From a virus, in the IMG/VR virus record IMGVR_UViG_3300047552_000676, positions 1 to 64,000 of that record: DNA of 64,000 nt; one strand, 5' to 3'. The position numbers were made by a program, and so were the translations under genes. Shown here piece after piece: positions 9,786 to 59,665 of the stretch (the first letter of the stretch is position 1; each line of letters opens with the position of its first letter). Below the pieces are notes generated by a model. It worked only from the letters and a program-made list of their open reading frames with translations, was not told the origin of the DNA and did no database searches.

Positions 9786-10262
9786 ATGGCTAATTCAAAA
9801 CCACTAGATCTAAAATATCTCAGAAAATTCATTCTTTCGGGAATGAAAAATAAAACTCTTACAAAGACATCCATACTAAGACTCTTAAAGAACCGACATC
9901 CTATTTGGGACCTAGTGAGATCAGACAACAAGATTGGTCTTAATGTCAAACTTCTATACGACAAACTTTCTATTCCAGAAGGTTCCTGTAAGGTGTGTGG
10001 AAACCCTACCGGTCTTAATAGGGCTATTTACTATGATCACTGTAGTGATTCCTGTGGAAACAAGTCTAAAAACCGTATTGAACGGAGCATGAAATCTAGA
10101 CAACACTCAAAATTTCACATTTTGAACTCTCGCGGCGAAGTGAAAGATCGATCGCACAACTTTCCAAATCTCAGACGCAAGATACTCTCTATGGTAAATG
10201 GGGACTCCCCAGATTGTTCCCGTATGAGTTTTTCTAGATATCTAAAAAGAATTATCCACTAG
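9786..10262 (+). pseudogene. N-terminal part of a zinc-finger homing endonuclease, split by a frameshift
   Basis: 158 aa ending at TAG 10260-10262. It has a helical segment (LYDKLSIP) followed by a zinc module CxxC-x15-CxxxC (CKVCG...CSDSC). The next frame, open from 10238, repeats the same layout (RLFQSFNIP, CLECD...CSKSC) and adds a nuclease domain. The two join with a -1 shift at the A-tract near 10244-10248, where the second frame reads KKNYPLVFLDV, matching KNRHPIWDLV in the first unit. I therefore read 9786-10828 as one gene split by a one-base change or by programmed frameshifting. It is on the opposite strand to its neighbours and inserted between replication genes, as homing genes often are. 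Confidence 0.6.
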
Positions 10263-10828
10263 TGTTTTTAGATGTTAAATGCGCTGCCTATCGAGGTCTT
10301 GACATGAAAAGACTTTTTCAGTCTTTTAACATACCTCTAGAATCTAGGTGTCTAGAATGTGACTCACCCGTTAGTCTAGGCATAAAAGGCTTTAGATACA
10401 GGCAGTTCTGTAGTAAGTCTTGTAAGGCTACCTATCACGTAGGAGCCGGGTTTTCAATTAAGACATTTGTGGACTCAACAGGTAAATCTCATTCTTATCA
10501 AGGTTACGAGGATAGAATTTTGAAGATTTTAGATAGGTCCTCAAAAGTAGCTAGCTTTTCTACCTCGGATATTCCAAAGATCAGGTACAGATACAAGAAA
10601 GAAGCCAAATCTAGAACGTACCATCCGGATATAGTTGCTTTTCTTAAAGACGGTCGAAAGCTTTTGATAGAAGTGAAAAGTACCTATACGCTAGTCCATG
10701 CGAAGACTTTTGCCTTAAACAAGAGAAAATTTGAAGTCGCTTCAAAACTGTCCAAGCAACATGGGTTTGAGTTCTGGCTAGCTGTTGTTGATAAAAAAGT
10801 TTCTTGGCACTGGAACGGCCTGCACTAG
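10262..10828 (+). CDS. homing-endonuclease-like protein with PD-(D/E)xK nuclease domain (C-terminal part of split gene)
   Basis: 188 aa if a GTG at 10262 is used. It begins with the second zinc module (CLECD...CSKSC) and ends with a nuclease domain of the Vsr/TnsA-like PD-(D/E)xK type: a Glu in YQGYEDRIL, then SRTYHPDIVAF and LLIEVKSTYTL, giving the E...D...ExK signature. The catalytic residues are intact, so this half could still be active. It overlaps the preceding reading frame and probably belongs to the same gene (see 9786-10262). Its stop abuts the convergent gene at 10829. Confidence 0.7.
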   Translation: MFLDVKCAAYRGLDMKRLFQSFNIPLESRCLECDSPVSLGIKGFRYRQFCSKSCKATYHVGAGFSIKTFVDSTGKSHSYQGYEDRILKILDRSSKVASFSTSDIPKIRYRYKKEAKSRTYHPDIVAFLKDGRKLLIEVKSTYTLVHAKTFALNKRKFEVASKLSKQHGFEFWLAVVDKKVSWHWNGLH

Positions 10829-58566: not shown

Positions 58567-58640
58567 TGGTAGCCCCTACAAGAATCGAACTTGTGTATCC
58601 GCCGTGTAAAAGCGATGTTCTACCATTGAACTAAGGGGCT
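58567..58640 (-). tRNA. tRNA-Val (anticodon UAC)
   Basis: Acceptor AGCCCCT pairs with AGGGGCT, T-loop TTCGATT, anticodon loop TTTACAC giving UAC. Encoded CCA follows the discriminator A. The first tRNA of the array as read leftwards toward the operon promoter. Confidence 0.92.
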
Positions 58641-58649
58641 GAAAATTGA

Positions 58650-58723
58650 TGGGAAGGGCTGGATTCAAACCAGCGACGCAAGCCTTATAATGGACTCCGC
58701 TCTATCAACTGAGCTACCCTCCC
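58650..58723 (-). tRNA. tRNA-Ile (anticodon UAU)
   Basis: Acceptor GGGAGGG with CCTTCCC (one G-U), D-arm TAGCTCAGTTGATAGAGC, anticodon loop ATTATAA giving UAU, T-loop TTTGAAT. One mismatch lies in the anticodon stem. CCA is not encoded (TCA follows). Confidence 0.85.
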
Positions 58724-58729
58724 GAAATC

Positions 58730-58803
58730 TGGAGCGGGAAACGGGAATCGAACCCGTGTCATTAGCTTGGAAGGCTAAGGTTCTACCATTAAACTACTCC
58801 CGC
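58730..58803 (-). tRNA. tRNA-Gly (anticodon UCC)
   Basis: Acceptor GCGGGAG with TTCCCGC, anticodon stem TTAGC/GCTAA with loop CTTCCAA giving UCC, T-loop TTCGATT, encoded CCA. A short leader separates it from the tmRNA coding piece. Confidence 0.93.
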
Positions 58804-58807
58804 AAGA

Positions 58808-59245
58808 AGTGGTCGGTTCTTACACAGACCCCCAGCAAGACTTGCGTCTAACTAGAGGTGACCGACCTTGCGAGGGCCTTCACTTCACTGGATCGGTATC
58901 ACCAGAAAGATCCGGGGCTCCCCCGCTCACTGGCTCAGGCACGCTGAGCGAACAGACTGTCGTTGGCAGTTGCTTGCTTTGCTTGGTATTTCATCTTGCT
59001 TCGTTTCCTCCACAAGACGAGGGCTCCGCTTGCCCTAGCAGTTCATCTCAGTGTTCTCATCCCCGTCGAAACCAGGACTGGCCCACCTAAGGATACTCAA
59101 GGTCGCTACTGACATAAAAGTATCATACTTTGTTAGGCGTATGAACTCAGGAATATCCTTAGGTGGACCAGGCGAGAGTCGAACTCGCGTCCGGAAACAA
59201 TTACACTTCGATTCTGGCAGGATTCACGCCCTGCCTACTGCCATC
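58808..59245 (-). ncRNA. ssrA: circularly permuted (two-piece) tmRNA
   Basis: On the minus strand the order is reversed from standard tmRNA. First comes the acceptor piece (about 59245 to 59162): GGCAGG/CCTGCC hairpin, then GGACGCGAGTTCGACTCTCG, the tmRNA T-arm, and acceptor strand CTGGTCC plus ACC. A 77-nt intervening segment follows, then the coding piece from G at 59084: GGGCCAGTCCTGGTTTCGAC, matching the conserved tmRNA 5-prime end. CTGGTCC pairs with GGGCCAG, and the pairing extends through the intervening segment to an 18-bp stem (59078-59095 with 59154-59171). A tag frame and pseudoknot-like stems follow. Mature RNA should rescue stalled ribosomes with SmpB. Confidence 0.85.
58935..58967 (-). 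other. tmRNA tag reading frame, ANDSLFAQRA
   Basis: Inside the coding piece GCC AAC GAC leads into a 10-codon frame ending with TGA at 58935-58937 and encoding ANDSLFAQRA. The stop lies in a hairpin (GCTCAG/CTGAGC), the position of helix 5 in known tmRNAs. The tag start AND is typical of proteobacteria, but the usual C-terminal LAA or AA degron is replaced by QRA. The resume codon is inferred from the ANDxxxA pattern, not shown. Confidence 0.7.
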
Positions 59246-59496
59246 TGAACTTATTTACAATGTTTTCAAGTGACTACTGCTGTGACTGCAGAAGTCAGCA
59301 CCTTGATTCAAGAAAAGATTACTCTAAGGATTAGAGTCTTGACTAGAGCATTAATTCTTCGTGGCATCGGACAACAGACCTCCGTCGTGGATAGGCTGTC
59401 TAGCTCACCTATCCCTCGTAAGCGTCTGTGCCTACTTTATCCGTTGACTATCTCGTTGGCCTAACGATTTGAGAGTAATCTTATCTCGAATCAACA
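59246..59496 (-). other. non-coding spacer with hairpins between tRNA-Arg and tmRNA
   Basis: About 250 bases without a credible gene. Palindromes include ACTCTAA-GGA-TTAGAGT (59321-59337) and GGATAGG/CCTATCC. It may hold a further non-coding RNA, tmRNA leader sequences or only processing sites; no clear promoter is seen. Confidence 0.35.
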
Positions 59497-59573
59497 TGGC
59501 GCGACCAGAGGGAGTCGAACCCCCGACCCACATCTTAGAAGGATGTTGCTCTATCCGGCTGAGCTATGGTCGC
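59497..59573 (-). tRNA. tRNA-Arg (anticodon UCU)
   Basis: Acceptor GCGACCA with TGGTCGC, D-arm TAGCTCAGCCGGATAGAGC, anticodon loop CTTCTAA giving UCU, T-loop TTCGACT, discriminator G and encoded CCA. Confidence 0.93.
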
Positions 59574-59578
59574 AAGAT

Positions 59579-59665
59579 TGGTGCGGGTGAGAGGACTCGA
59601 ACCTCCACGCTATTTCTAGCGCCAGACTCTAAATCTAGTGCGTCTACCAATTTCGCCACACCCGC
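59579..59665 (-). tRNA. tRNA-Leu (anticodon UAG)
   Basis: Class II tRNA: acceptor GCGGGTG/CACCCGC, anticodon loop TTTAGAG giving UAG, long variable arm with CGCTA-GAAA-TAGCG, T-loop TTCGAGT, encoded CCA. Confidence 0.93.

What the first reader, a model, noticed from the sequence alone, without database searches (positions are those of the whole stretch)
58808..59245. Phage-encoded circularly permuted tmRNA
The minus strand carries first the tmRNA 3-prime end (GGACGCGAGTTCGACTCTCG and acceptor strand CTGGTCC), then a 77-nt spacer, then the tmRNA 5-prime end (GGGCCAGTCCTGGTTTCGAC). The two acceptor strands are complementary, and an 18-bp stem continues into the spacer. This is the layout of the permuted, two-piece tmRNA of some bacteria. 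Phage tmRNAs have been reported, but I do not know this permuted form as a common phage feature.
Basis: partly seen in the sequence, partly recalled or inferred. Interest (0 to 1): 0.9.

Follow-up and report, generated by a model that had tools for sequence, protein, structure and literature searches.

The report
Permuted tmRNA in a jumbo phage
A probable jumbo phage carries its own two-piece (circularly permuted) ribosome-rescue RNA; such phage RNAs are already known, but the protein tag this one encodes has lost the usual "destroy me" ending, so it may free stuck ribosomes without marking the proteins for destruction.

Summary
Window 58844-59253 (-) is a circularly permuted tmRNA: Rfam RF04321 60.8 bits (cut-off 47), ARAGORN "tmRNA*", 7-bp acceptor stem with the Ala identity pair G3·U70, 21-bp stem running into the 77-nt spacer (shuffles reach at most 15), fold z = -3.9. 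It lies in a tRNA array of a 70-kb myovirus contig whose terminase resembles those of 190-260-kb Burkholderia, Achromobacter, Rhizobium and Pseudomonas phages. The unusual part is the tag, ANDSLFAQRA. A relative encodes AANDSSFDQRLAA; the window looks like that form minus two codons (Leu-Ala), with the stop-codon hairpin kept through a compensatory pair. No other tag of about 120 unique viral permuted tmRNAs ends -RA; none of 98 bacterial permuted tags lacks Ala-Ala, against about 14 viral ones. I think it is a working tmRNA using host SmpB whose tag is a weak ClpXP signal. Processing, charging and tag fate are untested. New member of a known kind, with one testable twist.

The parts
58844..59253 (-). 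circularly permuted tmRNA (ssrA) gene, precursor extent as called by ARAGORN
   Evidence: ARAGORN tmRNA*; RF04321 60.8 bits over 58935-59218; fold z -3.87
59162..59253 (-). acceptor piece (3' part of the tRNA-like domain, comes first in the gene): P2 strands, T arm, acceptor 3' strand, A73-C74-C75 (CCA only partly encoded: ACCT)
   Evidence: sequence, cofold, parse
59172..59188 (-). T arm GCGAG-TTCGACT-CTCGC
   Evidence: 5/5 T-stem pairs
59165..59171 (-). acceptor stem 3' strand CTGGTCC
   Evidence: 7/7 pairs with 59078-59084 including G3.U70
59085..59161 (-). intervening spacer, 77 nt, expected to be removed; its ends extend the acceptor stem by 14 bp to 21 bp
59078..59084 (-). acceptor stem 5' strand GGGCCAG, start of the coding piece (expected RNase P cleavage at 59085/59084)
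58844..59084 (-). coding (mRNA-like) piece, about 241 nt; 59065-59036 forms the interrupted P2 helix with the acceptor piece
   Evidence: cofold
58935..58967 (-). tag reading frame GCC AAC GAC AGT CTG TTC GCT CAG CGT GCC TGA = ANDSLFAQRA*
   Evidence: ARAGORN, located
58933..58949 (-). hairpin holding the end of the tag and the stop codon, GCTCAG-CGTGC-CTGAGC; in relative L320 GATCAG-CGCCTCGCGGC-CTGATC (A-T to C-G compensation, loop 6 nt longer)
58567..58803 (-). flanking tRNA genes Val(TAC), Ile(TAT), Gly(TCC), downstream, same strand
59497..59665 (-). flanking tRNA genes Arg(TCT), Leu(TAG), upstream, same strand; five more tRNAs up to 63937

Best explanation
A phage-borne, probably functional, two-piece tmRNA. 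Shown from sequence: permuted gene order, complete tRNA-like acceptor and T arm with G3.U70, strong pairing between the two pieces, a tag frame beginning AND, and position inside a same-strand tRNA array of a myovirus. Inferred: the array is transcribed together and cut by host tRNA-processing enzymes (RNase P at the 5' side of GGGCCAG, 3' trimming and CCA repair at the other end, because only CC of CCA is encoded). The two pieces stay together through P2, are charged with alanine by host AlaRS, bound by host SmpB, and rescue ribosomes stalled on broken mRNA during infection. The tag end has lost the Leu-Ala-Ala signal through an in-frame loss of two codons in the loop of the stop-codon hairpin, so rescued chains should be poorer ClpXP substrates than those tagged by the host tmRNA.
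For: for the RNA itself. All 78 unique viral permuted tmRNAs parsed keep G3.U70, 77 keep 7/7 acceptor pairs, and acceptor positions 4-6 vary with pairing kept, so the group is under selection for a working acceptor stem. Phage identity: terminase, portal, tail sheath; terminase 35-38% identical to Burkholderia BcepSauron/BcepSaruman and Achromobacter Motura. Three relatives by terminase carry permuted tmRNAs with tags ANDEQFAQALAA, ANDAQFLQAANA, AANDSSFDQRLAA. The stop-codon hairpin is kept by compensatory change while its loop is 6 nt shorter. No SmpB in the 70-kb record. Penultimate or ultimate Ala mutations raise KM for E. coli ClpXP (PMC7652416).
Against: No expression, processing or SmpB-binding data. 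Full CCA is not encoded. Only 3 of 33 IMG/VR terminase relatives (many of them fragments) and 0 of 10 isolate relatives have RF04321 matches, so it is a patchy accessory. The contig is incomplete, so SmpB could lie elsewhere in the genome. The -RA tag is a single metagenomic sequence without a close relative, and 'deletion of two codons' rests on alignment with distant relatives.
Confidence: 0.8

Rival explanations
1. An inhibitory decoy: the phage RNA competes with host tmRNA for SmpB or the ribosome, or gives chains a harmless tag, to shield phage proteins or to disarm host trans-translation, as proposed for the tag-less tmRNA-like RNA of mycobacteriophage DS6A.
For: DS6A precedent: a molecule that is little more than the tRNA-like domain strongly inhibits tmRNA, perhaps by titrating SmpB (PMC4131195; PMC11915505). 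Here the tag has lost Leu-Ala-Ala, and about 14 of 120 viral permuted tags lack terminal Ala-Ala against 0 of 98 bacterial ones.
Against: The tag frame, stop codon and hairpin are kept, which a pure titration decoy would not need; most viral tags keep Ala-Ala; two large phages with permuted tmRNA even carry SmpB.
Confidence: 0.12
2. A decaying copy picked up from a host, with the tag drifting because nothing selects for it.
For: Single contig; odd tag; incomplete CCA; patchy occurrence among relatives.
Against: Perfect acceptor and T-arm pairing, G3.U70, z = -3.87, AND start, stop codon in frame, hairpin kept by compensatory change. Exact GGGCC-type 5' ends were found in only 1 of 84,980 bacterial genomes but in many viral contigs, so it is not a fresh host copy.
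Confidence: 0.06
3. Chance inverted repeat next to tRNA-like sequence, not a tmRNA.
For: None beyond the modest RF04321 score (60.8 bits; many bacterial examples score 113-166).
Against: Score above the curated cut-off, independent ARAGORN call, 21-bp stem against at most 15 in shuffles, clear homologues.
Confidence: 0.01

Closest known systems
Betaproteobacterial two-piece tmRNA (Rfam RF01850) within permuted tmRNA (RF04321)
   Same: T-loop TTCGA, G3.U70, CTGGTTTCGAC motif, spacer beginning ACCYAAGG, tag of the ANDxxFA type
   Different: Acceptor GGGCCNG instead of GGGGGUG-like; longer coding piece; below the RF01850 cut-off; tag ends QRA instead of LAA or IAA
Two-piece tmRNAs of phages (OM43 phage Melnitz, pelagimyophages, cyanophages; Buchholz et al. 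2022, PMC9004378)
   Same: Phage-borne permuted ssrA
   Different: Different phage group (terminase of the Sarumanvirus/Moturavirus jumbo phages); gene in a tRNA array. PMC9004378 describes Melnitz ssrA as associated with a glutamine riboswitch; no riboswitch family passed Rfam's cut-off in this window
tmRNA and SmpB of huge phages (Al-Shayeb et al. 2020, PMC7162821)
   Same: tmRNA among translation genes of large phages
   Different: No SmpB in the 70 kb held here
tmRNA-like RNA of mycobacteriophage DS6A (PMC4131195, PMC11915505)
   Same: Phage tmRNA that would not yield normally tagged, degradable protein
   Different: DS6A lacks the whole tag frame; here only the C-terminal degron is altered

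Membership tests
tmRNA (ssrA) | 7-bp acceptor stem with alanine identity pair G3.U70 | tested here: met
   GGGCCAG/CTGGTCC, 7/7 with G3.U70
tmRNA (ssrA) | T arm plus D-loop-like segment without an anticodon arm; P2 helix in its place | tested here: met
   T stem 5/5; CTGGTTTCGAC segment; P2 by cofold
tmRNA (ssrA) | Tag reading frame starting at a resume codon and ending in a stop | tested here: met
   ANDSLFAQRA* at 58967-58935
tmRNA (ssrA) | Proteolysis-inducing tag end (Ala-Ala; usual but not strictly defining) | tested here: not met
   ends -QRA; only one ending so in the survey
tmRNA (ssrA) | Pseudoknots around the tag | not tested
   nested folding only
tmRNA (ssrA) | Charging by AlaRS, SmpB binding, trans-translation | not testable with these tools
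   needs experiment
Circularly permuted tmRNA (RF04321) | 3' tRNA part before the 5' part, spacer between, score over the family cut-off | tested here: met
   60.8 bits against 47, full model 1-213; 77-nt spacer
Circularly permuted tmRNA (RF04321) | Cleavage of the precursor into two pieces | not testable with these tools
   needs RNA end mapping
beta_tmRNA (RF01850) | Score over the gathering cut-off | tested here: not met
   60.9 bits against 84, tRNA domain only

The most novel reading that the evidence does not exclude
The phage has turned tmRNA into a rescue device that releases stalled ribosomes but adds a tag that is not efficiently degraded, and the same change (loss of terminal Ala-Ala) has arisen several times in viral permuted tmRNAs (-RA, -NA, -VA, -YA, -AV, -TV) but not in the bacterial ones sampled.
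Probability: 0.3. Interest if true: 0.6.

Novelty: new member of a known kind. Interest (0 to 1): 0.35.

Why it matters
As a phage two-piece tmRNA it adds one more group of phages (relatives of Burkholderia/Achromobacter jumbo phages) to a known set. If the tag really is a poor degron, it would show that viruses separate the two jobs of trans-translation, ribosome rescue and proteolysis, and would make testable why phages carry tmRNA: to free ribosomes, to shield phage proteins, or to overwrite host tagging.

Tried and rejected
Chance inverted repeat: rejected. Copy from a sampled bacterial host: not supported; the exact GGGCCNGNCCTGGTTTCGACGGGG motif was in one bacterial genome only, there with a one-piece tmRNA. 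Close relatives: DNA searches of the phage collection, a single-protein terminase scan and a 20-base motif scan found none. Another phage with tag ANDxxxxAQRA: none by pattern. SmpB in the record: none. Sequencing error as the cause of -QRA: unlikely, since the difference from LAA-type tags is not one base and the frame and hairpin are kept, but it cannot be excluded without reads. Promoters and terminators: nothing beyond chance. Pfam gave no match for nine of ten ORFs examined, including all those near the tmRNA. Some ARAGORN tags in the survey were misread (L240, L447 by re-reading; L369 by eye from the sequence printed there; L190 and L208 were second, spurious calls) and were corrected or dropped by hand; three long odd tags (L129, L167, L363) were left in and may also be misread.

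Full report
The thing itself. On the minus strand, 58844-59253 reads as a permuted tmRNA: the 3' half of the tRNA-like domain comes first (T arm 59188-59172, acceptor strand CTGGTCC 59171-59165, then ACC), followed by a 77-nt spacer, then the 5' half (GGGCCAG 59084-59078, CCTGGTTTCGACGGGG) and the tag frame (58967-58935). Rfam's permuted model RF04321 scores 60.8 bits over its cut-off of 47, and ARAGORN independently calls a permuted tmRNA. Among the older lineage models only beta_tmRNA matches, in the tRNA domain and below its cut-off. The acceptor stem is complete, carries G3.U70, and continues for 14 bp into the spacer, 21 contiguous pairs against at most 15 in shuffled sequence. The precursor folds well (z = -3.87), and the two expected mature pieces pair through an interrupted P2 helix.

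Where it is. The record is a 70,115-base IMG/VR contig with portal, large terminase and tail sheath, so a myovirus. Its terminase is 35-38% identical to those of Burkholderia phages BcepSauron/BcepSaruman and Achromobacter phage Motura, with more distant matches in Rhizobium, Pseudomonas, Dickeya, Erwinia and Xanthomonas phages of 190-265 kb. The contig is therefore probably part of a jumbo phage genome; a betaproteobacterial host is a guess from this and from the beta-like tmRNA. The tmRNA sits in an array of ten tRNA genes on the same strand. No SmpB gene was found in the 70 kb.

Relatives. Of ten isolate phages related by terminase, none has an RF04321 match; of 33 related IMG/VR contigs, three do. 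Their tags are ANDEQFAQALAA, ANDAQFLQAANA and AANDSSFDQRLAA. Motif scans of IMG/VR gave, with those three, 121 unique sequences that ARAGORN calls permuted. In the first 78 of these, G3.U70 is universal, the acceptor is fully paired in 77, and positions 4-6 vary with pairing kept. In most, the stem extends into the spacer with a mismatch opposite C74; the window is the only one with 14 of 14 extra pairs. The GGGCC acceptor is common in the scan that did not preselect it (17 of 29 unique), yet a 24-base motif containing it occurs in only one of 84,980 bacterial genomes. This suggests a long-standing phage lineage, though the motif also fixes other bases. Twenty large or related contigs with permuted tmRNA were searched for SmpB; two (297 and 524 kb) have it.

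The tag. ANDSLFAQRA ends -QRA. Comparison with L320 (TTC GAT CAG CGC CTC GCG GCC TGA) and L318 (TTC GCT CAG GCC CTC GCG GCC TAA) suggests that the window (TTC GCT CAG CGT GCC TGA) lacks the two codons CTC GCG, Leu-Ala. The hairpin with the stop codon is GCTCAG-CGTGC-CTGAGC in the window and GATCAG-CGCCTCGCGGC-CTGATC in L320: one A-T pair has become C-G and the loop is 6 nt shorter, as expected of a small in-frame loss in a maintained structure. In E. coli, mutation of either terminal Ala, or of the Leu before them, raises KM for ClpXP (PMC7652416), so this tag should be a weaker degron in a host with a similar ClpX; that is inference.

Is it a trend? After hand correction, about 14 of 120 unique viral permuted tags lack terminal Ala-Ala (-RA, -NA, -VA, -YA, -AV, -TV, -TA), against 0 of 98 bacterial permuted and 0 of 27 one-piece tags sampled from Pseudomonadota. 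Fisher's test gives p = 3e-4, or 0.007 without the six cyanobacterial-type tags, but the sequences are related, cyanobacterial hosts were not sampled, and a few long odd tags may be misread. I treat it as a lead. [quoted passage not shown] the window's tag ends in Ala but has Arg before it.

Known or new. Phage tmRNAs, including two-piece ones, have been described: 53 in 2022, mostly aquatic (PMC9004378); tmRNA and SmpB in huge phages (PMC7162821); 79 bacteriophage entries in the 2025 database, whose authors also built RF04321 (PMC11915505). The finding is a new member of a known kind. The degron-poor tag is the only part I would follow up.

Noticed in passing
L013, L015, L043, L056, L057, L120 (IMG/VR): Viral tmRNAs of the cyanobacterial type have tags ending -AV, -TV or -TA instead of -AA (e.g. 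AANKIVKFTRQSAPVAV); another six of this type keep -AA.
   Followed up: partly
L319: A terminase relative has tag ANDAQFLQAANA followed by two stop codons, a second departure from Ala-Ala in the same phage group.
   Followed up: partly
L321 and L322 (SmpB loci in records of 524 kb and 297 kb): Two huge viral contigs carry both a permuted tmRNA and an SmpB gene, a self-contained rescue set.
   Followed up: partly
L123 632-993 (-): Burkholderiales MAG with a one-piece tmRNA (tag ANDERFALAA) whose 5' end matches the GGGCC type typical of the phage permuted tmRNAs.
   Followed up: partly
L129, L167, L363: Very long tags (about 30 residues, e.g. ATASTGEVTVKANKGIRFSARSTAKAEAFAV) predicted in viral permuted tmRNAs; may be real or ARAGORN misreadings.
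   Followed up: no
10262-10828 (+): ORF matching the TnsA-like endonuclease N-terminal domain (PF08722) and DUF7487 (PF24308).
   Followed up: no
59254-59496 (-): About 240 nt without an obvious gene between tRNA-Arg and the tmRNA, on the strand of the tRNA array.
   Followed up: no
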